Origin: CAVSKL01 sp963728475 [NCBI: Candidatus Eiseniibacteriota bacterium]
GTDB lineage: Bacteria; Eisenbacteria; RBG-16-71-46; JABDJR01
Direction: 5' to 3'
NCBI GenBank assembly: GCA_963728475.1
Contig: CAVSKL010000001.1
Coordinates: forward strand, 1,116,001 to 1,180,000
DNA length: 64,000 nucleotides
Below are positions 29,955-60,085 of this stretch, piece after piece (position 1 is the first letter of the stretch; each line of letters begins with the position of its first letter). The notes beneath the pieces are model-generated. The model made no database searches and was not told where the DNA came from. It saw only the letters and a program-made list of their open reading frames with translations. The position numbers and the translations under genes are program-made.

Positions 29955-31076
29955 ATGAATCAGAACGACCGCTTCCTCGACCATCTCTCGCAGCTCGACC
30001 GGCGCCTGGACGAGATCAACCACGAACTCACCGATCCCAGGGTCCTGGGGAGCCCGGCCTCGCTCAAGCGGCTGGGGAAGGAGCGCGCCGAGGTCCAGGA
30101 GATCGTCTCGGAGCTTCGCAAGTACGAGTCGCTCCGGAACCGGCTGGACGAAGCCCGGGAGATCCTCGACACCGCCGGCGACCCCGAGATGCGGGAGCTT
30201 GCCGAGGCCGAGGTGGAGGAGTGCGAGCCCGGCTTGGAGCCGCTCCGCCGGCGGATCACCGAGCTGCTCTTCCCCGCCGACCCCAACGACAGCAAGGACG
30301 TGATCGTGGAGATCCGGGCCGGCACCGGGGGGGACGAGGCGGCGTTGTTCGCGGGCGAGCTGTACCGGATGTACACCCGCTACGCCGAGCGCCAGGGCTG
30401 GGGGAGCGAGGTCCTGAACTCCAGCGAGACCGGGATCGGCGGCCTCAAGGAAGTGATCTTCAACCTGTCCGGGCGCGGGGTGTACGGACGGATGAAGTAC
30501 GAGAGCGGCGTGCACCGGGTGCAGCGGGTGCCCGAGACCGAGGCCTCGGGCAGAATCCACACCTCCGCGGCGACGGTGGCGGTGCTCCCCGAGGCCGAAG
30601 ACGTGGACGTCGAGGTCAACGAGAAGGACCTCCGGGTGGACGTCTACCGCTCCAGCGGCCCCGGCGGGCAGGGGGTCAACACCACCGACTCCGCGGTCCG
30701 CATCACCCACCTCCCCACCGGGCTGGTGGTCACCTGCCAGGACGAGCGCTCCCAGATCAAGAACAAGGCCAAGGCGATGAAGATCCTTCGTTCCCGGCTC
30801 CTCGACGCCAGGATCCGGGAGCAGGAGGAGGCGATGCGCACCAGCCGCCGGACCCAGGTATCGACCGGCGATCGCAGCGCCAAGATCCGCACCTACAACT
30901 TCCCCCAGGGACGGGTCACCGACCACCGCATCAACTTCACCGCGCACCGGCTCCACGAGATCCTGGAGGGGGACCTGGACGAGCTCACCGAAGCCCTGGT
31001 CGCGGCGGCGGCCGAGGAGCGGCTGGAAGAGGCGGAAGCGGGGGAGCGCGATGCCGGAGCGGCCCAACGCAACTGA
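29955..31076 (+). CDS. prfA: Peptide chain release factor 1
   Basis: 373 residues. GGQ at 237-239 (SSGPGGQGVNTTDS) triggers peptide release; GRIHTSAATVAVLPE and YNFPQGRVTDHR are family signatures. RF1 reads UAA and UAG and not UGA, relevant because a UGA here appears to be read as selenocysteine at 39167. It overlaps prmC by 26 bp, coupling RF1 synthesis to its modifying enzyme. Confidence 0.97.
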   Translation: MNQNDRFLDHLSQLDRRLDEINHELTDPRVLGSPASLKRLGKERAEVQEIVSELRKYESLRNRLDEAREILDTAGDPEMRELAEAEVEECEPGLEPLRRRITELLFPADPNDSKDVIVEIRAGTGGDEAALFAGELYRMYTRYAERQGWGSEVLNSSETGIGGLKEVIFNLSGRGVYGRMKYESGVHRVQRVPETEASGRIHTSAATVAVLPEAEDVDVEVNEKDLRVDVYRSSGPGGQGVNTTDSAVRITHLPTGLVVTCQDERSQIKNKAKAMKILRSRLLDARIREQEEAMRTSRRTQVSTGDRSAKIRTYNFPQGRVTDHRINFTAHRLHEILEGDLDELTEALVAAAAEERLEEAEAGERDAGAAQRN

Positions 31077-31974
31077 CCGAGGCCCCGTCCCCGGCGGCGG
31101 CTCGCCCCGGGTCCTGGACGCCTGGCGCCGGGAGGCGCGGAGCCGGCTCGCCGCCGCCGGAATCGAATCCGCCGCCGCCGAAGCCGACCTCATCGCCCGT
31201 CACGTGCTGGGGCTCACCCGGGTGGAGCTCGTCGCCGGCCCCCGCCGCCCGCTGGGCCCGAACGAGCGCCGGAGGCTGACCCGGATCCTTCACCGCCGCC
31301 TCAACCGCTTTCCTTTACAGTACTTACTGCGCGAAGTAGACTTTTTTGGCCTGACCCTCGAAGTCACCCCCGCGGTGCTGATTCCCCGGCCCGAGACCGA
31401 GGGGTTGGTGGAGCGGGTGCTGGCCGGGCTGGCGCCGGACGAGCCGGCCACGGTGCTCGACGTGGGAACGGGAAGCGGGGCCATCGCGCTGGCGGTGGCG
31501 GCCGGGCGGCCGCGGGCGCGGGTGTGGGGGACGGATCTCTCCCCGGCCGCGCTCCGGGTGGCGCGGCGGAACGCGCGCCGGCTGGGGCTTGCGGACCGGG
31601 TCCGCTTCTTCGCCGGGGACCTCACCGATCCGGTGGAGAGAGCGCAACCGGTCCCTCCATTCCGGGTCGTGGTGAGCAATCCGCCGTACGTGGCGTCGCG
31701 GGAACGCCGGAGCCTCGCGCCCGAGGTCGCCGACCACGAGCCGGCGGCGGCGCTCTTCGCGCCGGAACGGGGGCTGGGGGTGATCCGGCGTCTCATTCCG
31801 CGAGCCGCGCGGCTCCTTCCCGAGAAGGGTCTCCTGGCCCTGGAGATCGGGGAGAGCCAGGGGGAAGCGGTCCGGAAGTTGGCCGCGGGCTCGAGGCAGT
31901 TCCGAGAGGTCCGGGTGGAGCGGGACCTGGCGGGCAGGGACCGTTACCTCCTGGCCGTGCGATCCCGTTCGTGA
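31051..31974 (+). CDS. prmC: Release factor glutamine methyltransferase
   Basis: 307 residues. Helical N-terminal domain, then a SAM-binding fold with VLDVGTGSGAIALAVA and the catalytic NPPY (210-213). It methylates the Gln of the GGQ motif in release factors. A short stretch around 31315-31345 is noticeably AT-richer than the rest of the gene. ATG 31051 lies inside prfA. Confidence 0.93.
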   Translation: MPERPNATDRGPVPGGGSPRVLDAWRREARSRLAAAGIESAAAEADLIARHVLGLTRVELVAGPRRPLGPNERRRLTRILHRRLNRFPLQYLLREVDFFGLTLEVTPAVLIPRPETEGLVERVLAGLAPDEPATVLDVGTGSGAIALAVAAGRPRARVWGTDLSPAALRVARRNARRLGLADRVRFFAGDLTDPVERAQPVPPFRVVVSNPPYVASRERRSLAPEVADHEPAAALFAPERGLGVIRRLIPRAARLLPEKGLLALEIGESQGEAVRKLAAGSRQFREVRVERDLAGRDRYLLAVRSRS

Positions 31975-33741: not shown

Positions 33742-35010
33742 ATGGACAAGTTCGTGGTCACCGGGGGAGCCCGGTTGGAGGGGCGGGTGGACGCGGCGGG
33801 GGCCAAGAACGCGGTGCTCCCGATGATGGTGGCCACCCTCCTGGCCCCCGGGGTGAGCCGCATCCGGCGCACCCCCCGGCTCCGCGACATCGCCACCCTC
33901 GGCCGGTTGCTGGAGACCCTGGGAGCGAAGGTGACCCGCGACGGCGACGTCCTCGCCATCGACACCTCCGGGCCCACCTCGGTGGAGGCGCCCTACGACC
34001 TGGTCAAGACCATGCGCGCCTCGGTCTACGTTCTGGGGCCGCTCCTGGCCCGCGCCGGCCGCGCCCGGGTCTCGCTCCCCGGTGGCTGCGCGTGGGGTCC
34101 CCGACCGGTGGACCTGCATCTGAAGGGCATGCAGGCCCTGGGAGCGGAGATCACCATCGACGAGGGTTACATCGTGGCCTCGGCGCCGCACGGGCTCACC
34201 GGGGCGGAGATCGTGCTCGACATCCCGTCGGTGGGGGCCACCGGCAACATCATGATGGCGGCGGTGGGCGCCCGCGGGCTCACCCGCATCGCGAACGCGG
34301 CGCGCGAGCCGGAGATGCCCGCGCTGGCCGAGTTCCTGATCGCGATGGGGGCGCGCGTCCACGGCGCCGGGACCTCGGAGATCACGGTCGAGGGCGGGGG
34401 CGACCTGCATCCGGCCGAGGCCTCGGTGGTGGCGGACCGGATCGAGGCCGGGACCTTCCTGGTGGGAGCCGCCATGACCGGCGGCGACGTGACCGTGTCG
34501 GACTGCGTTCCGGAGCACTTGCAGGCGCTTCTCTCCAAGCTCCAGGAGGGGGGGGCCGAGGTCTCCCGCGGCGAGGACTGGGCGCGGGTGCGCGGGGTCC
34601 GCCGGCCGCGCGGGATCAAGGTCACCACCGATTTCTTCCCCGGCTTCCCCACCGATCTCCAGGCCCAGATGATGGCCCTGGCCGCGGTCTCGGAGGGAAC
34701 CTCGGTGATCACCGAGCAGATCTACCGGGACCGCTTCACCCACGTGGCCGAGCTCGCGCGGCTGGGGGCGCGCGTCTCCCTCGACCAGAACGTGGCGGTC
34801 GTCGAGGGGCGGGAACGGCTCTCCGGCGCGCACGTCATGGCCACCGACCTGCGCGCCTCGGCCGCGCTCATCCTGGCCGGTCTCGCCGCCGAGGGGGAGA
34901 CCCACATCTCGCGCGTCTACCACATCGACCGGGGTTACGAGCGGATCGAGGCCAAGCTGGCCGCCCTCGGCGGCACGGTGCGGCGGGAAGACGAACCCCT
35001 GGTCACATGA
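33742..35010 (+). CDS. murA: UDP-N-acetylglucosamine 1-carboxyvinyltransferase
   Basis: 422 residues. K22/N23 in GAKNA and the catalytic C116 in LPGGCAWGPRPVD (the fosfomycin target Cys) are present, with the second domain RAS and ATDLRAS signatures. First committed step of peptidoglycan synthesis, in the cytoplasm. The stop overlaps the selB start by 4 bp. Confidence 0.96.
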   Translation: MDKFVVTGGARLEGRVDAAGAKNAVLPMMVATLLAPGVSRIRRTPRLRDIATLGRLLETLGAKVTRDGDVLAIDTSGPTSVEAPYDLVKTMRASVYVLGPLLARAGRARVSLPGGCAWGPRPVDLHLKGMQALGAEITIDEGYIVASAPHGLTGAEIVLDIPSVGATGNIMMAAVGARGLTRIANAAREPEMPALAEFLIAMGARVHGAGTSEITVEGGGDLHPAEASVVADRIEAGTFLVGAAMTGGDVTVSDCVPEHLQALLSKLQEGGAEVSRGEDWARVRGVRRPRGIKVTTDFFPGFPTDLQAQMMALAAVSEGTSVITEQIYRDRFTHVAELARLGARVSLDQNVAVVEGRERLSGAHVMATDLRASAALILAGLAAEGETHISRVYHIDRGYERIEAKLAALGGTVRREDEPLVT

Positions 35011-36932
35011 GCGATCCCTCGCGCTTCGCCATCCTCGGGACCGCCGGACACATCGATCACGGGAAGACGGCGCTGGTGGGACTCCTGACCGGCACCGACA
35101 CCGACCGGCTCAAGGAGGAGAAGTCCCGGGGCATCTCCATCGATCTGGGCTTCGCCCACCTCGACCTCCCCGGCGGGATCTCCTGCGGGGTGGTGGACGT
35201 TCCCGGCCACGAGCGGTTCGTGAAGAACATGCTGGCGGGGGCGTGCGGGGTGGACGCGGTGCTGCTGGTGATCGCCGCCGACGAGGGGGTCATGCCCCAG
35301 ACCCGCGAGCACCTGGACATCGTGGATCTCCTGGGGGTGCGCAAGGGGGTGGTCGCGCTGACCAAGACCGATCTGGTGGACGGGGAATGGCTGGAGCTGG
35401 TGACGGAGACGGTGGCGGACTACCTCGCGAAGCGGGGATTCGAGGAGTTCCCGGTGGTGCCGGTCTCCTCGCGGACCGGCGCCGGGAAGGACGCGCTCCT
35501 GGACGCGCTCTCCGCGGTGATGGGCACCCTCGAGGAACGGCCCACCCAACGGTCGCCGCGCCTCCCGGTGGACCGGGCGTTCGTGGTGGAGGGGTTCGGG
35601 ACCGTGGTCACCGGCACCCTCTGGCAGGGGACGCTCCGGCCCGGCGACCGGATCCGGGTGGAACCGGCGGGGGTCGAGACCCGCATCCGGAACGTGGAGG
35701 TGCACGGACGCCCGGTGCCGGAGGCGCGGGCCGGCCAGCGCACCGCGGTGGCCCTGGCCGGGGTGCCTCGGGAGACGGTGCCGCGCGGCTCGTGGCTGGT
35801 GGCGCCCGGCACCCTGGTCCCTTCCCACATGCTCGACGTGAGGCTCCGGGTGCTCCGCGACGCTCCCAAGGAGATCCGCCACCGCCAGCGCATCCGCTTC
35901 CACCTGGGGGCGAGCGAGCTGCTGGGGCGGGTGGTGCTCCTGGAAGGGGACACCCTCGCGCCCGGAAAGGAAGGGCTGGCGCAGATCCGGCTGGAGGCGC
36001 CGGTGGTAGCCGATCGCGGCGACCGTTTCGTGCTGCGGTCCTATTCCCCCGCGCGCGCGGTGGCGGGGGGGACGGTGCTGCTCCCGGTCGCGCCCAAGCG
36101 GCGCCGCGGCCACGCCGCGACCCTGGAGGAACTCCACCGCGAGGAGTCGGGGAGCGCCGAGGACCGCCTTCTGGCCGCGCTGGAGACGATGCCGTTCGGC
36201 GGGTCGTGGATCGACGGGGGGCGCCAGGCGGGCTTGGCCGAGGCCGAGGCGGTCCGGGCCGGGGAGGCGCTCGCCGCCGAGGGGCGGGCGGTGGTGCTGG
36301 AGGACGGAAACGCGATTCCGGCGAGGACGCTCCTGGGCCTCGCCGCCAGGGCGGAGGAGGTGTTGGCCGGACTCCAGCGCGCCTACCCCTTCCGCTGGGG
36401 CGCGACTCGGGGTGAACTCAAGAGCCGGGTGGGGCAAAAAATGCCGGCGCCGGTCTTCGACCGGGTGATCCGGGAACTGGCGGCGGCGGGGCGGGTGAGC
36501 CAACGGGAGGAGTACGTGCGCCTGGGCGGCGAGAGCCTGGATCTCCCGCCGGAGCTGCGCATGCGGGTGGAGCAGGTGGCGGGGGAGCTGGCCGGGGGCG
36601 GCCTCACCCCCCCCTCTCCCAAGGAACTCCAAGCCCGGCTGGGGTTTGCCGCCGGAGAGGTCCTGGAGCACTTGACTTTCGAAGGGGAGGCGGTGAAAGT
36701 GACGCCCGAACTCTTCCTGAGCGCGTCCAGCACGGGGCGCATCGTGTCGTGGGTTGAAAATTTCTTTCAAGACCACGCCGAGCTGAGCGTCGGCGACCTG
36801 CGCGACGGCCTGGGAATGAGTCGCAAGTTCTCGGTTCCGGTGCTCGAATTCCTGGACCGCCAGGGCTGGACACGCCGTCTGGGCGATGTACGAGTCCCCG
36901 GGCGTAGACTGGGAGATACGCCCCACGCATGA
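35007..36932 (+). CDS. selB: Selenocysteine-specific elongation factor SelB
   Basis: 641 residues, full length. EF-Tu-like G domain with GTAGHIDHGKTALV, the DVPGHERFVKNM G3 region and TKTD G4; domains II and III; and a C-terminal half of winged-helix repeats (roughly 400-641) that bind the SECIS hairpin. It delivers Sec-tRNA to UGA codons. selA, selD and selC are not in this window. A candidate target, the UGA-containing gene at 38978, lies 2 kb downstream. Confidence 0.95.
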   Translation: MSDPSRFAILGTAGHIDHGKTALVGLLTGTDTDRLKEEKSRGISIDLGFAHLDLPGGISCGVVDVPGHERFVKNMLAGACGVDAVLLVIAADEGVMPQTREHLDIVDLLGVRKGVVALTKTDLVDGEWLELVTETVADYLAKRGFEEFPVVPVSSRTGAGKDALLDALSAVMGTLEERPTQRSPRLPVDRAFVVEGFGTVVTGTLWQGTLRPGDRIRVEPAGVETRIRNVEVHGRPVPEARAGQRTAVALAGVPRETVPRGSWLVAPGTLVPSHMLDVRLRVLRDAPKEIRHRQRIRFHLGASELLGRVVLLEGDTLAPGKEGLAQIRLEAPVVADRGDRFVLRSYSPARAVAGGTVLLPVAPKRRRGHAATLEELHREESGSAEDRLLAALETMPFGGSWIDGGRQAGLAEAEAVRAGEALAAEGRAVVLEDGNAIPARTLLGLAARAEEVLAGLQRAYPFRWGATRGELKSRVGQKMPAPVFDRVIRELAAAGRVSQREEYVRLGGESLDLPPELRMRVEQVAGELAGGGLTPPSPKELQARLGFAAGEVLEHLTFEGEAVKVTPELFLSASSTGRIVSWVENFFQDHAELSVGDLRDGLGMSRKFSVPVLEFLDRQGWTRRLGDVRVPGRRLGDTPHA

Positions 36933-36983: not shown

Positions 36984-37583
36984 ATGGAACGACGCCTGAG
37001 TGGGAGCCCGGGGGAAGAACTCAAGGGCGCCCGCGATGCCGAGCTGGTGGCCCGCTCCAAGGCCGGAGACACGGAAGCCTTCGGGGAGCTGGTTCGCCGG
37101 TACCAGAAACCGGTCTTCCGGATCGTCCTGCGTATGGTCAAGAGCATGGACGACGCGGACGACCTGACCCAGGACACGTTCGTCCGGGCGCATCGCGGGC
37201 TCAGGACCTTCAAGGAAGAGTACGACTTCCATCCCTGGCTCTACCGGATTGCGGTCAACCTGGCCATCAACTTCATCAACCGTCGCAAGCGTCAGGCGGC
37301 GGTGGATCTCGAGGATGTGCCGGAAGGCGACGTCAAGTCGGGACCGGATCCGGAAAGCCCCATCCAGGCTGCCTCGAGACGGGAGCTCCTCGACCGTCTG
37401 GAGGGTGCGCTCGAGCGTCTTCCCGACGAACAGCGCACCGTGTTTCTCCTGCGAGTGCAGGAAGGACTTTCCTACGAGGAGATCGCCAAAGCCATGGATA
37501 CGCCCAAGGGAACGGTGATGTCCCGTCTGGCCAGAGCCCGCATGGCATTGCGCAAGTATCTCAATATGCAGCAGCTGCCTTGA
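36984..37583 (+). CDS. ECF-type RNA polymerase sigma factor
   Basis: 199 residues. Region 2 (FGELVRRYQKPVFRIVLRMV, DDADDLTQDTFVRAHR) and region 4 (LERLPDEQRTVFLLRV, LSYEEIAKAMDTPKGTVMSRL) of the RpoE-like group. The next gene, 18 bp on, encodes a zinc-finger anti-sigma, so this is a standard ECF/anti-sigma pair sensing envelope stress or redox state. It sits between selB and the selenoprotein operon. Confidence 0.92.
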   Translation: MERRLSGSPGEELKGARDAELVARSKAGDTEAFGELVRRYQKPVFRIVLRMVKSMDDADDLTQDTFVRAHRGLRTFKEEYDFHPWLYRIAVNLAINFINRRKRQAAVDLEDVPEGDVKSGPDPESPIQAASRRELLDRLEGALERLPDEQRTVFLLRVQEGLSYEEIAKAMDTPKGTVMSRLARARMALRKYLNMQQLP

Positions 37584-37601: not shown

Positions 37602-38714
37602 ATGAGCGCGCCGATCCACCCCTCACCCGACGAACTCAGTGGATTTCTCGACCGGGAGCTCCCGGAATCCCGCCGCCAGGAAGTCGACCACCACCTGAGC
37701 GATTGCCCCGAATGCCGTTCCCTGGTGGACGGCTTCACCTTTCTCGAGGAACTGGGACCCCGAATCACCGAATCCCTTCCCGGGGACGCCTACTGGCTGG
37801 ATCTCCCCGACCGGGTCCTGGCCCGGATCGCCGCGGCCGACCGCGCGCCGGCGCCGGAGGCCCCGGCCGAACCGCGCCCTTCGCGGTGGCGGCAACTCTG
37901 GAACCCGCAGGGGATCTGGCGCTGGGCCGCGGGATCCGCGGCGGCGGTGGTGATCCTGGCCGGAGCCTGGGTCACCGTCCACCAGTCCCGAAGCCCGGTC
38001 GCCCCCGAGCCGATGCTGGCGGAGAACCGTGAGGACAACGTGGCCCTGCCTCCCGCGGGGCTGACCCGCGCCGTCTCCACCGGGGACGAGGAGAGCCAGC
38101 CGGCCATGAACCCGGATGCGTTCTCCCGCCGGGTGATCATGACCCTGGGCGGTTCGGGCAACCTGGGCCAGACCCTGGACATGCCCTCGGGCCAGGCGGT
38201 GGTGAGCGCCGGGGACCCGGGCGGCCTGGGGAGCCAGGTGGACTTCAGCCTGCCTCCGCTCAGCCCGGAGGGCCGGGCCGAGACCGCGGGAGTGCTGAGC
38301 TGCGGCCCCGGGGTGAGCCCGCTCGAGACCGCCTTCCTGTGCGCGGCCAAGGCCGACGAGATGGGCAACGACGACCTCGCCCGGCAGGGGTACCAGATCG
38401 TCCGCAAGATGGCCGGCCCCAGCCAGCCCATCTACTGGGAGTCCGACTTCCGGCTGAACTACCACGCGTGGCGCGAGCGGCTCGCCGCGGCTCCTCCCGG
38501 CGCGCCGCGGGCGGAAGTCCTGAGTGAGCTGGGCCGGCTGGCCGACCAGTCCTACCAAGAGTGGCAGGCGAGCGGCGGCCAGACCGACTGCCAGCGCGCG
38601 TGGTGCCTGAACCGGACGTTCTACAAGCTGGCCGACGAGGTATCGCCGTCGGCGCAGCTCCAGACGGTGGTGGATCGGACCCACGAGCTCGTCCGCTGTA
38701 TGAACAAGCGTTGA
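37602..38714 (+). CDS. Membrane anti-sigma factor with zinc-binding N-terminus
   Basis: 370 residues. The zinc-binding anti-sigma motif VDHHLSDCPEC (His30/31, Cys35, Cys38), one TM helix near 106-124, and a long extracytoplasmic domain (about 245 residues) rich in Gly and Ser. C35/C38 could make it redox-responsive like ZAS proteins. It should hold the ECF sigma at the membrane until a signal arrives. Confidence 0.85.
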   Translation: MSAPIHPSPDELSGFLDRELPESRRQEVDHHLSDCPECRSLVDGFTFLEELGPRITESLPGDAYWLDLPDRVLARIAAADRAPAPEAPAEPRPSRWRQLWNPQGIWRWAAGSAAAVVILAGAWVTVHQSRSPVAPEPMLAENREDNVALPPAGLTRAVSTGDEESQPAMNPDAFSRRVIMTLGGSGNLGQTLDMPSGQAVVSAGDPGGLGSQVDFSLPPLSPEGRAETAGVLSCGPGVSPLETAFLCAAKADEMGNDDLARQGYQIVRKMAGPSQPIYWESDFRLNYHAWRERLAAAPPGAPRAEVLSELGRLADQSYQEWQASGGQTDCQRAWCLNRTFYKLADEVSPSAQLQTVVDRTHELVRCMNKR

Positions 38715-38877: not shown

Positions 38878-38920
38878 CCGGCACCGGCACCGGCACCGGC
38901 ACCGGCACCGGCACCGGCAC
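38878..38920. repeat. Hexanucleotide repeat (CCGGCA)7 upstream of the selenoprotein gene
   Basis: Seven perfect CCGGCA units lie 57 bp before the start codon, between the terminator and the gene, where copy-number change would alter promoter or leader spacing. Confidence 0.85.
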
Positions 38921-38977
38921 ATGGATTGTGGTATCCTTTTTGTCGTGTTCCGCTTCCCTTCCGCCGGAGGGACCCTC

Positions 38978-39541
38978 ATGACCCTGCGCCGTTCCGTCGC
39001 CGCCTTCACCCTCGCCGCCCTCCTGACGCTTCCCGCCGCGGCCCTGGCGGTGGGGGTGGGGGACACCGCTCCCGATTTCAGCTTCACCGACGTCCAGTCC
39101 GATTCCACCCTCACTCTCTCGTCGTTCCACGGGAAGGTGGTGGTGCTGGCGTTCTTCTTCTACGGCTGAACGTTTTGCCGGGCCTGGGCCGGGCCCTTCC
39201 AGCAGAACGTGGTGCAGGCGTACGCCGGCACCGACCAGGTGGTGTTCCTGGGAATCGAGGACGGGAGCACCCTGGATCTCGTCCGGAGCTGGATCGCGCA
39301 GTACGGCTGGACCTTTCCGGTGGGGGTGAAGAGCCCGGCCGACGACATCTATGCGCTCTACGGCGCGTACTACGACAACTTCTTCGTCATCGGCCGGGAC
39401 GGGGTGATCACCCAGAAGCTCACGTACGGCACCGAGGTCGACCAGGTCCTCTCGGTGATCCCCGCCGCGGTGGACGATGCGCTCGCCCACGTTCCGGTCA
39501 GGCCCGCGACCTGGGGCCGGATGAAGCGGCGGTATCGGTGA
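38978..39541 (+). CDS. Predicted selenoprotein: exported thioredoxin/AhpC-like protein with UxxC motif
   Basis: ATG 38978 (GGAGGG six bases upstream) opens a signal peptide, then the AhpC/TSA-like start VGVGDTAPDFSFTD. At codon 64 an in-frame TGA (39167-39169) sits where thioredoxin-like proteins have the first Cys of CxxC: FFYG-U-TFCRAW. The frame then continues unbroken for 123 codons with clear homologous-looking sequence (IEDGSTLDLVRSWIAQYGW, DNFFVIGRDGVITQ) to a TGA at 39539. Total 187 residues with Sec. It is the first gene of an operon with a TlpA-like protein and an outer-membrane protein. If Sec is not inserted the product ends after 63 residues. Confidence 0.8.
39171..39209 (+). promoter_or_regulatory. 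SECIS-like stem-loop after the UGA
   Basis: Outer stem CGTTTTGC (39171-39178) pairs with GCAGAACG (39202-39209) with one G-U pair. Inner stem GGGCC (39180-39184) pairs with GGCCC (39192-39196) around the 7-nt loop TGGGCCG. The apical loop starts 16 nt after the UGA and has G in its first two bases, the features expected of bacterial SECIS elements. Confidence 0.65.
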
Positions 39542-40146
39542 CGGTACTTCCGCGATCGCTCCGGCGCGTCCGCGTCCCCGTCCGAGGCCCCGCCGCCTGG
39601 GTGCTGGCATTGCTTCTAGCCGCCCCCGGCGTTTCCGCCGCGCCCGGCGCCGCCCCGGACGGCGCCAAGAGCCTGGGAGCGGCCCCTCCCCTGGCCGCCC
39701 GGGACCTGGACGGCAAGCCCTTCGACCTGGCCCGGCGCCTGGATCGCGGACCGGTGCTGGTGACCTTCTGGGCCACCTGGTGCAAGCCCTGCCGGAAGGA
39801 GCTTCCCGAGCTCCAGAAGCTCCTGGAGCGCTACCGCGACCGCGGCTTCGGGGTGGTGGCGGTGGGCGAGGACGGCCCGGTGGACGCGGCCAAGGTGGCG
39901 CCCTACGTGCGGGCCTCGAAGTTCACGTTCACGGTGATTCCCGACCCCGACGGCGACATCCGCCGCCGCTTTCAGGTCGAGGCGCTTCCCACTGCCTTCC
40001 TGATCGGGCGGGACGGCGAGGTGGTCCACCGGCAGATGGGCTACCGGCGGGGCGACCAGGACATCCTGGAGCGGGAGCTGGGGAAGATCCTCCCCGCGGC
40101 CGCTCCCGCCGAAGGCGGTCCGCCTCCATCCGGCGAGGGGCGGTGA
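39538..40146 (+). CDS. TlpA/ResA-like thioredoxin-fold protein
   Basis: 202 residues from GTG 39538, which overlaps the selenoprotein stop (GTGA). Signal peptide or anchor near residues 18-36, then a TlpA-like domain with LVTFWATWCKPCRKELPE (C82/C85) and VEALPTAFLIGRDG. Probably a periplasmic thiol-disulfide reductant, here with an ordinary CxxC, in contrast to the UxxC protein upstream. The two may form a redox relay. The stop overlaps the next start by 4 bp. Confidence 0.88.
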   Translation: MTVLPRSLRRVRVPVRGPAAWVLALLLAAPGVSAAPGAAPDGAKSLGAAPPLAARDLDGKPFDLARRLDRGPVLVTFWATWCKPCRKELPELQKLLERYRDRGFGVVAVGEDGPVDAAKVAPYVRASKFTFTVIPDPDGDIRRRFQVEALPTAFLIGRDGEVVHRQMGYRRGDQDILERELGKILPAAAPAEGGPPPSGEGR

Positions 40147-41645
40147 GGGGCGGTCCCCTCGCCGCGGCGTTGGCCGCGGCGGCGCTGGCCGCGGGCGCGA
40201 CCCCGGCCGGGGCCTCGGACTGGGTGCTCACCGGTTCGGGGCGGATCGATGCGCTCTCCTACCGGAATCCCACCCCGTTCCTGCGCGCGCAGGGGGTTTC
40301 CGGCGGCGCGGTGAACCTCGACGGCTGGTTCGACACCCGCGCCTACTACCGGGACTGGGAGGCGTCGGCCCGGTTCCGGGTGCATCAGTCCTCGGGGATC
40401 GCCGGCGACGCGTCCGAGGAGACCATCGACCGGCGGCACGTGGCGTTCCATTCCTCCGATCTCGAAGTGTGGGCCGGCAACTACTACGTCACCTTCGGGA
40501 ACGGGCTCATCCTCCGGACCCTGGAAGAGCGGTTCGTGACGCTCAACCGGACCGAGCGCGCGTTCAACCTGGACCGGAACCTGGACGGAGTGCGGGTGCG
40601 CAGCTCGCAGGGGCCGGCGGCGCTGACCCTGGTGAGCGGGCGGCCGAACCGGCAGAGCCTCTCCACGGTGGGCGGGGCGAGCGCCGAGACCACCCAGGAC
40701 CTTCTGCAGGGGGGCGAGGCCACGGCGAGCGCGGGGCCGTTCACCGGCGGGTTCGGCTACGTGCGGGCGGAGCTGGAGGACGCCGGCGCGGCGGTGCCCA
40801 CCCGGAACCAGGAGGACCTGGTCTCCTACCGCGGACGGGCCGCGGCCGGCGGCTGGAGCGGGGAGTTCGAGTACGCGGAGAAACGACCCCACGGGGAATT
40901 CGACTCGCGGGGGTTCGCCCGCTATCTCCGGGTGGACGGCGCGGTGGGCCCGGTGGGGATGAGCCTGGAGGCCAAGAGCTACCGCCGGTTCTCGTTCCCC
41001 TACAACCAGCCGCCGACCCTGGTCCGCACCCAGGAATCGGTGCTGCTGAACCGCGCCACCCACGTGCTCCTTCCCGAGGACGAGCGCGGGGTTCAGGCGG
41101 AAATCCTCGTCGCCCCCAGCCTGGACACGAGCGTGCTCTTGAACCTGTCCGGCTCCGGCGACCACCACGACTCCTACGGGCGGCAGTACCGCGAGGTGTA
41201 CCTGGAAGGGCGGGGGGAACGCGACGGGGTGGGGGCGGCGCGGCTGGGCCTGGACTGGGGGCGGGACCGGCTGGAAGGCGTCGACGACCGCTGGACGGCG
41301 GCCCTGGAGCTGGAGCGGTTCGTGACCGGGGCCCAGTCGCTGATCGTGGACCTGGAGATGCAGGCGGTGGACGAGTTCCGCGCCCGGCACACCCACGGGC
41401 TGATGTCGCTGGCATGGTCGAAGGCGGGGGCGTGGACGGCGTCGGTGACCGGCGAGCATGACAGCGAGCGCGACCTGGACCGGCGCGACTGGCTGTTCGG
41501 GTCGCTGGACCTGCGCCTCTCGGAGCGCCACGACCTCACCGTGGGCTACGGCTCCCGCCCCGAGGGGACCGTCTGCACCGGCGGGTTCTGTTTCGTCTCG
41601 CCTGCCTTCGAGGGGGCGGAGGTACGGCTGCTCAGCCGGTTCTAG
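40143..41645 (+). CDS. Outer-membrane beta-barrel-like protein, unknown
   Basis: 500 residues from GTG 40143 (GTGA overlap). Signal peptide ending near PAGAS, then many amphipathic strands and a terminal aromatic VRLLSRF. Contains YYVTFGNGLILRTLEERF, reminiscent of DUF6029-type outer-membrane proteins of Bacteroidetes-like bacteria. Third gene of the operon with the selenoprotein and TlpA-like protein; a client or partner of that redox pair is plausible but unproven. Confidence 0.75.
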   Translation: MRGGPLAAALAAAALAAGATPAGASDWVLTGSGRIDALSYRNPTPFLRAQGVSGGAVNLDGWFDTRAYYRDWEASARFRVHQSSGIAGDASEETIDRRHVAFHSSDLEVWAGNYYVTFGNGLILRTLEERFVTLNRTERAFNLDRNLDGVRVRSSQGPAALTLVSGRPNRQSLSTVGGASAETTQDLLQGGEATASAGPFTGGFGYVRAELEDAGAAVPTRNQEDLVSYRGRAAAGGWSGEFEYAEKRPHGEFDSRGFARYLRVDGAVGPVGMSLEAKSYRRFSFPYNQPPTLVRTQESVLLNRATHVLLPEDERGVQAEILVAPSLDTSVLLNLSGSGDHHDSYGRQYREVYLEGRGERDGVGAARLGLDWGRDRLEGVDDRWTAALELERFVTGAQSLIVDLEMQAVDEFRARHTHGLMSLAWSKAGAWTASVTGEHDSERDLDRRDWLFGSLDLRLSERHDLTVGYGSRPEGTVCTGGFCFVSPAFEGAEVRLLSRF

Positions 41646-59133: not shown

Positions 59134-59676
59134 TCAGGCCTTCGTCTGCATCCTCTGGAGCAGGTTCACCAGGTCGTCGGCGTGCTCCTCCTCCTGCTTG
59201 AGGATGTCCTCGATCAGCCGCCGGGTGGTGGGATCGTCGTCGTCGAGCCAGCGCGCCACCTCGCCATAGGTCTCGATGGCGATGCGCTCGGCCACCAGGT
59301 CCTCGCGGATCATCTCCTCCAGCGAGTTCCCCTCCTCGTAGTCGGCGTGGGATCGGTCACAGAGGCCCTTGGGGTTGAAGTCGGGGGCCCCGCCGAGCTG
59401 GACGATGCGCCCGGCCACCCAGTCGGCGTGCTGCTGTTCCTGGCCGGCGTGCTCCAGGAACTCCGCCGCCACCGGGCCGCTCTCGATCCCCGTCGCCATG
59501 TAGTAGTGCCGCTTGTAGCGGAGGGTGCAGACGATCTCGGTGGCCAGGACCTCGTTCAACACCTGGATGACCTGGTCGAGGTCGCCCTTGTACCTGCCGA
59601 CCACCGCCCCCTTCTCCATGTGCTGGCGGGCGCGGGAGCGGATCGATTCCATGTCCAAGACGAATTTTCCGGGCAT
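59134..59676 (-). CDS. Bacterioferritin/ferritin-like di-iron protein
   Basis: 180 residues forming a four-helix bundle. Ferroxidase-type residues occur in order: E in VLATEIVCTLRYKRHYY, EHAGQEQQHADW, E in EDLVAERIAIETYGEV and KQEEEHADDL. Similar to bacterioferritin-type proteins of iron storage or peroxide defence. ATG 59676 follows AGGAGG 11 bases upstream; an earlier Met (MDSSQEDLSP) is an alternative start. Confidence 0.85.
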   Translation of the reverse strand: MPGKFVLDMESIRSRARQHMEKGAVVGRYKGDLDQVIQVLNEVLATEIVCTLRYKRHYYMATGIESGPVAAEFLEHAGQEQQHADWVAGRIVQLGGAPDFNPKGLCDRSHADYEEGNSLEEMIREDLVAERIAIETYGEVARWLDDDDPTTRRLIEDILKQEEEHADDLVNLLQRMQTKA

Positions 59677-60085
59677 AGGGGATAAGTCCTCCTGCGATGA
59701 GTCCATGACGATCGCGACCGGGAACGAACCGGAAAGCGGAGCTTTCATGGTAACGCGGGGGGCGGGGTGGAAGCCAGGGCCCCGCGGGAGCCCCGGTTTC
59801 GTTTCGGATCGAAGCGATGTTGCCGAATGGAACAGCCGATCCGCTTCATCTTGAATCAAGGGGCTTGGAGGCGGCCTGTCGCAGATTGGACCGCGGCGCT
59901 TGACCTTGTCTAACGCGTTGTTTACCATTGAATTGTGAAGCCGGACAGGCGCCGGGGCTCCTTGGCACGTTGCCTGCACATATAGGTGGGCGACGGTTTG
60001 AAGCGCGACGGCGAGACGCGCGAGACTCGAGGACCCAACAAATCAAACTCGCCCGGGCGAGCGCCCGGGAACGGAGGTGGCAGAC
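59677..60085. other. Intergenic region with hsp20 promoters
   Basis: 409 bp, no gene. Two promoter candidates point to hsp20: a sigma54-like site at 59963-59978 and a sigma70-like TTGACC (59900-59905), 17-bp spacer, TACCAT (59923-59928). Confidence 0.6.
59963..59978 (+). promoter_or_regulatory. Sigma54-like promoter before hsp20
   Basis: TTGGCACGTTGCCTGCA matches TGGCACG-N4-TTGCA at all but one key base, and the GG and GC doublets (59964-59965, 59976-59977) are separated by the required 10 bp. Confidence 0.5.

What the first reader, a model, noticed from the sequence alone, without database searches (positions are those of the whole stretch)
38978..39541. Undetected selenoprotein with a UxxC active site
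Seen: one open frame runs through an in-frame TGA at 39167-39169, at exactly the first Cys of the thioredoxin CxxC motif (FFYG-TGA-TFC), with protein-like sequence on both sides. A complete selB lies in the same window. Known: bacteria place Sec at this position in several redox families. Inference: standard gene calling would split it into a truncated 63-residue protein and an orphan.
Basis: partly seen in the sequence, partly recalled or inferred. Interest (0 to 1): 0.85.

Follow-up and report, generated by a model that had tools for sequence, protein, structure and literature searches.

The report
Secreted thioredoxin-like selenoprotein gene
A bacterial gene very probably uses a stop codon to put the rare amino acid selenocysteine at the active site of a thioredoxin-like enzyme; it is a convincing but ordinary kind of selenoprotein that standard gene finders would cut in two.

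Summary
Frame 38978-39541 runs through one TGA at 39167-39169 (residue 64 of 187) inside a PF00578/ResA-like protein with a signal-peptide-like N-terminus. TGA stands where relatives have the first Cys of CxxC (U64-x-x-C67). Both halves have coding composition, and the distal stop overlaps the GTG start of a Cys-type TlpA gene (CKPC). A full-length selB ends about 2 kb upstream. A hairpin directly after the TGA meets the published bacterial SECIS model, but so do 21% of coding positions tested in this GC-rich window. In 61 genomes related to a Phycisphaeraceae MAG, six homologous stretches contain a TGA, all six at this codon; their five genomes are all among the 13 of 61 with selA and selB. 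A Chloroflexota sample was less clear. Most likely this is a true Sec-decoding gene, a new member of known selenoprotein kinds (Prx-like/redoxin/TlpA UxxC). selA, selD and selC of this genome could not be tested: no genome is held. No NCBIfam model reaches its cut-off, so annotation would probably miss it. The less ordinary part is the operon: U-redoxin, TlpA, then a DUF6029 protein (probably an outer-membrane barrel) whose only two cysteines lie near its C-terminus, a possible substrate.

The parts
38978..39541 (+). Selenoprotein gene: 187-residue AhpC-TSA/ResA-like redoxin, U64-T-F-C67, hydrophobic signal-peptide-like N-terminus (residues about 1-24, judged by eye)
39167..39169 (+). In-frame TGA, proposed Sec codon, at the first Cys position of CxxC
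39170..39210 (+). Predicted bacterial SECIS hairpin: 9-bp basal stem 39170-39178/39202-39210, 7-bp upper stem 39180-39186/39190-39196, apical loop GGC 39187-39189, 17 nt after the TGA
   Evidence: present in the 48- and 60-nt folds, not in the minimum-energy fold of 81 nt
39538..40146 (+). TlpA/ResA-like thiol-disulfide oxidoreductase with WCKPC; its GTG start overlaps the stop of the selenoprotein gene (GTGA)
40143..41645 (+). DUF6029 (PF19494) protein, probably an outer-membrane barrel (inferred); GTG start overlaps the stop of tlpA; its only two Cys are C478 and C483
35007..36932 (+). selB, Sec-specific elongation factor with winged-helix domains 2 and 3

Best explanation
38978-39541 encodes an exported, thioredoxin-fold thiol-disulfide oxidoreductase (ResA/TlpA/Prx-like). 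Its nucleophilic residue is selenocysteine, inserted at UGA 39167 by SelB with the help of the hairpin immediately downstream. U64 and C67 form the selenol-thiol pair that exchanges electrons with substrate disulfides outside the cytoplasm, working with the co-encoded Cys-type TlpA. Shown by sequence: frame, fold family, the U/C column, selB, gene overlaps. Inferred: actual Sec insertion, export, redox activity, co-transcription and partnership with TlpA.
For: One Pfam domain spans the TGA; best PDB sequence hits are 2ls5 and ResA 4nmu. Codon composition is coding-like on both sides. The next gene starts inside the distal stop, so the distal end looks like a real gene end. U64 aligns with the first Cys of CxxC in relatives and in the neighbouring TlpA. 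In 61 genomes, 6 of 6 homologous stretches with an internal TGA have it at this codon, and their 5 genomes are all among the 13 of 61 with selA and selB; the hypergeometric chance is about 2e-4, worked by hand and ignoring that the genomes are related. The hairpin meets the bSECIS criteria quoted in PMC13188914; 6 of 8 TGA relatives also meet them, against 145 of 949 control codons in the same loci. selB is over its cut-off, 352 against 242 bits. In a low-confidence AF2 model (pLDDT 63) U64 sits between a strand (55-61) and the long helix 65-82, the thioredoxin active-site place; the best Foldseek hits are ResA/TlpA/DsbE-type proteins, with AhpE-type peroxiredoxins lower in the list.
Against: No close orthologue was found (about 30-38% identity over 100 or more residues), so conservation of the TGA within the subfamily is untested. 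selA, selD and selC were not testable. The hairpin criteria are met by 21.1% of 3557 coding positions here and by 34.4% of 5000 synonymous versions of the same peptide. In 81 nt the minimum-energy fold is a different one, z -0.32. No Rfam SECIS match. In the Chloroflexota sample 2 of 5 listed rows with a TGA had it at the catalytic site, there as the UGC variant, and 3 of 5 did not.
Confidence: 0.93

Rival explanations
1. Assembly or sequencing error: the true codon is TGC (Cys) and one base was misread, so this is an ordinary CxxC redoxin.
For: TGC is the usual Cys codon in the 16 other genes counted (55 of 59) and one substitution converts it to TGA. No reads were available.
Against: An error would have to fall on the one residue where Sec replaces Cys, in a contig that carries selB 2 kb away and upstream of a SECIS-compatible hairpin.
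Confidence: 0.04
2. Recent nonsense mutation: a pseudogene.
For: No close orthologue is available to show that the distal half is under selection.
Against: The distal half keeps coding composition (GC3 0.93), the fold family and the overlap with the next gene start, with no second lesion in the frame; the position is exactly the catalytic one.
Confidence: 0.02
3. Two separate proteins (63 aa, and 110 aa from GTG 39209).
For: A mechanical ORF list shows this.
Against: It splits a single PF00578 domain at its active site; neither half would hold a complete active site.
Confidence: 0.01

Closest known systems
Prx-like thiol:disulfide oxidoreductase selenoproteins (PF00578, UxxC), Table 1 of PMC13188914; Prx-like UXXC in PMC1088965 (passages)
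   Same: PF00578 domain, thioredoxin-like UxxC instead of the TxxU of Sec peroxiredoxin, Cys homologues
   Different: I had no family sequences to compare directly; membership at subfamily level is not established
Redoxin family selenoproteins (PF08534, UxxC) and thiol-disulfide isomerase-like (cd02966, UxxC), same table
   Same: PF08534 also matches above cut-off; UxxC
   Different: Representative sequences not compared; only table rows read
TlpA/ResA-like UxxC homologues found here in genomes related to a Phycisphaeraceae MAG (L018-L020, L022, L023, second TGA of L021)
   Same: TGA at the same aligned codon, C67 kept, genomes have selA and selB
   Different: Motif context W-U-(GP/PP/AG)-C instead of G-U-TF-C; distant relatives
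UGC-containing TlpA (Table 1) / ResA-like WAxxUGC (NF041054, name seen), seen here in L036 and L037
   Same: Sec at the catalytic site of a ResA-like fold
   Different: One residue shorter motif (UGC, not UxxC); L036 and L037 were not scanned with NF041054

Membership tests
Bacterial selenoprotein gene | In-frame TGA with homology continuing on both sides | tested here: met
Bacterial selenoprotein gene | TGA aligned to Cys (or Sec) in homologues | tested here: met
   24 of 34 Cys, 6 of 34 TGA (fetched on purpose), 4 of 34 other
Bacterial selenoprotein gene | bSECIS hairpin after the TGA (3-9 nt loop, G in its first two bases, 16-37 nt spacing, 4-16 bp upper stem, energy at most -7.5) | tested here: met
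   weakly discriminating in this GC-rich DNA (21.1% of 3557 coding positions pass), and lost in the 81-nt fold
Bacterial selenoprotein gene | selB in the genome | tested here: met
   TIGR00475 352 bits against a cut-off of 242
Bacterial selenoprotein gene | selA, selD and selC in the genome | not testable with these tools
   no genome held. In the window itself: no tRNA by ARAGORN, no Rfam match at gathering, no SelA or SelD among 33 window proteins scanned with Pfam; not every ORF was scanned
Bacterial selenoprotein gene | Se incorporation shown experimentally | not testable with these tools
   -
AhpC-TSA (PF00578) redoxin | Pfam gathering score reached | tested here: met
   47.9 bits against 26
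Prx-like thiol:disulfide oxidoreductase selenoprotein | PF00578 with UxxC | tested here: met
   definition
Prx-like thiol:disulfide oxidoreductase selenoprotein | Sequence grouping with the named representative (WP_010940744.1) | not tested
   sequence not fetched
Sec peroxiredoxin (PrxU, NF040737) | TxxU motif and family score | tested here: not met
   16.7 bits against 270; motif is UxxC
ResA (NF002854) | NCBIfam cut-off 170 bits | tested here: not met
   41.9 bits; resembles ResA but is not filed as ResA

The most novel reading that the evidence does not exclude
The operon is a selenium-dependent envelope redox relay dedicated to an outer-membrane barrel: the Sec redoxin and its TlpA partner set the redox state of the single Cys pair (C478/C483) near the C-terminus of the co-encoded DUF6029 protein, making assembly or gating of an outer-membrane protein depend on selenium.
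Probability: 0.15. Interest if true: 0.55.

Novelty: new member of a known kind. Interest (0 to 1): 0.32.

Why it matters
It adds a well-supported, probably exported UxxC redoxin to the selenoproteome, in a sequence that no NCBIfam model recognises at its cut-off, so ordinary annotation would probably leave two fragments. It also shows a way to vet such candidates without the genome: coding signal on both sides, overlap of the distal stop with the next gene, and co-occurrence of the catalytic TGA with selA and selB in relatives. The gene order with TlpA and a probable outer-membrane barrel that has one Cys pair gives a concrete substrate hypothesis.

Tried and rejected
No genome is held for the window, so selA, selD and selC could not be searched. 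The one genome-contig scan gave 4 distant relatives. Viral contigs gave no relative of the selenoprotein or of the DUF6029 protein, and three TlpA relatives at 36-37% identity that I did not follow. Plasmids gave 4 distant records, none covering 80% of the query. Reassignment of TGA in the whole genome: rejected, TGA ends 15 of 17 listed genes. Rfam: no SECIS match; two sub-threshold hits of other families (BSnc120, glutamine riboswitch) and none at gathering. DUF6029 was sought to test conservation of its Cys pair: 0 of 149, 0 of 199 and 0 of 201 genomes in samples of the three phyla reached; no control genome rang either, so this says nothing about absence elsewhere. Placing the organism: not done; I suspect Candidatus Eisenbacteria or a similar FCB lineage from 71% GC and gene content, which is recall and not a result; one paper search for Eisenbacteria with selenocysteine returned 0 papers, which has no weight for that reason. 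In the Chloroflexota sample 3 of 5 listed rows with TGA had Cys at the site and a stop elsewhere; all 5 genomes have SelB, but so do 3 of 6 comparison genomes, so that sample does not discriminate. Freedom from inner stops in the other 16 listed genes is no evidence for sequence quality, since they were chosen as open frames.

Full report
Observation. Window 38978-39541 (+) is a single frame broken by one TGA at 39167-39169. Read with TGA=U it gives MTLRR...VVVLAFFFYG-U-TFCRAWAG...RMKRRYR, 187 residues. The stop-to-stop segments before and after the TGA have a coding-like GC3 of 0.83 and 0.93 (the first includes bases before the ATG). A codon log-odds scan of the in-frame TGAs on both strands found 7 with coding-like sequence on both sides. 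By my reading several of the other six are ordinary gene ends (31074 is the stop of the prfA-like gene, 37581 of the sigma factor before an in-frame anti-sigma gene, 59104 of the methyltransferase) and the rest chance neighbours; 39167 is the one where both sides make a single domain. Pfam sees that domain across the TGA (PF00578 47.9 bits, cut-off 26; PF08534 37.6 bits, cut-off 26.6). TGA is the terminator of 15 of 17 listed genes, so the codon is not reassigned globally.

Gene context. Order: prfA-like, a methyltransferase, a lipoprotein-like gene, murA-like, selB (35007-36932; TIGR00475 352 bits against cut-off 242; SelB winged-helix domains 2 and 3 present), a sigma factor, a zf-HC2 anti-sigma-like protein (37602-38714), the candidate, a TlpA-type protein with WCKPC (39538-40146), and a DUF6029 protein (40143-41645; PF19494, 89.3 bits against 27). 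The names prfA, methyltransferase (31051-31974), lipoprotein, murA and sigma factor (36984-37583) are my reading of the translations, not database calls. The distal stop of the candidate lies in GTGA with the start of tlpA, and tlpA's stop likewise with the DUF6029 gene. This argues that the distal end of the read-through frame is a real gene end in an operon.

Homologues. Relatives are distant (about 30-38% identity over 100 or more residues; higher only in short matches). I aligned 34 stretches from 33 loci: those, and eight fetched, six of them because they held a TGA. L004 (match too short) and L005 (SelA) gave no row. Column 64 has Cys in 24 of 34, U (TGA) in 6, another residue in 4 (F twice, D, N); column 67 is Cys in 24 of 34. 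In one search (61 genomes related to a Phycisphaeraceae MAG) six rows had an internal TGA; all six are at this column, in motifs such as FFATW-U-GPC and FASW-U-AGC. SelA is over cut-off in 13 of 61 of these genomes and SelB-wing_3 in 13 of 61, the same 13 (one further SelA hit, G036, was below cut-off). The five genomes holding the six TGA genes (G005, G006, G044, G048, G056) are all among the 13; the hypergeometric chance, worked by hand, is 1287/5949147, about 2e-4, and ignores kinship among the genomes. Against this, in the Chloroflexota sample (201 genomes, listing truncated) five listed rows had a TGA: two at the catalytic site as WASW-U-GC, three not; SelB was present in all five genomes and in three of six comparison genomes.

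SECIS. The 45 nt after the TGA fold into a hairpin with a 9-bp basal stem, a 7-bp upper stem, loop GGC and 17-nt spacing, -22.3 kcal/mol. Against dinucleotide shuffles the 48-nt stretch has z -2.10 (4 of 200 as good), the 60-nt stretch, which keeps the hairpin, z -1.36 (21 of 200), and the 81-nt stretch z -0.32 with another minimum-energy fold. The review PMC13188914 (outline and abstract, sections 5 and 9 whole, parts 1 and 2 of 3 of section 7, and passages) gives the bSECIS model: 3-9 nt loop, G in its first two positions, 16-37 nt spacing, 4-16 bp upper stem, energy at most -7.5. All are met. Controls: of 5000 synonymous versions of the same peptide 34.4% meet the model, 3.5% fold as well, 16.9% have a basal helix of 9 bp or more. 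Of 3557 coding positions in nine window genes 21.1% meet the model, 6.2% fold as well, 1.2% have such a helix, and 7 have both model and helix; the helix criterion was chosen after seeing the hairpin. In eight TGA relatives 6 of 8 meet the model (L021 and L023 do not) against 145 of 949 control codons from the same loci. The hairpin is supportive and not decisive.

Fold. AF2 on a five-row alignment gave a low-confidence model (pLDDT 63, pTM 0.57) with U64 between strand 55-61 and helix 65-82. Foldseek's best PDB matches are Geobacter thioredoxin-family 3kcm, ResA and DsbE-type proteins (E about 1e-9 to 1e-8, TM by query length about 0.5), with AhpE-type peroxiredoxins further down. Sequence search of the PDB agrees (2ls5, 4nmu).

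Mechanism. Most likely SelB with Sec-tRNA decodes UGA 39167 with the help of the hairpin. The exported protein then uses U64 as nucleophile and C67 as resolving thiol in disulfide exchange, beside the Cys-type TlpA encoded next. Insertion, export and partnership are inferred. The DUF6029 protein encoded after that has exactly two cysteines, C478 and C483, near its C-terminus, which suggests a substrate. Conservation of that pair could not be tested: no DUF6029 was found in 549 genomes sampled from the three phyla reached, and no control genome rang. PMC9603273 (passages only) suggests, from similarity, a potential polysaccharide secretion role for DUF6029.

Known or new. UxxC selenoproteins of PF00578, PF08534 and cd02966 are listed in the review's table, and Prx-like UXXC proteins were reported in the Sargasso Sea set (PMC1088965, passages). 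The finding is a new member of a known kind. No NCBIfam model reaches its cut-off (best NF002854, 41.9 bits against 170), so model-based annotation would probably not rescue the gene. Other papers in the searches were seen as listings only.

Noticed in passing
L021 (G056:C1:954600-956200): One frame holds two in-frame TGAs: SYT-U-PPF (deiodinase-like; family name recalled, not called) followed by a ResA-like FASW-U-AGC, shortly after selB and selA on the same strand of that genome. Looks like a double-Sec fusion protein.
   Followed up: no
window 40143-41645: DUF6029 protein whose only two cysteines are C478 and C483 (VCTGGFC) near the C-terminus, in an apparent operon with two thiol oxidoreductases.
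   Followed up: partly
window 38880-38921: Run of GGCACC hexamer repeats just upstream of the selenoprotein gene, seen by eye.
   Followed up: no
L036 and L037 (two genomes of the Chloroflexota sample): UGC-type TlpA genes with closely similar strong hairpins (loop GGT) after the TGA.
   Followed up: partly
window 59134-59979 (-): Ferritin-like/rubrerythrin protein with about 138 N-terminal residues without a Pfam match at 1e-5, or a start called too early.
   Followed up: no
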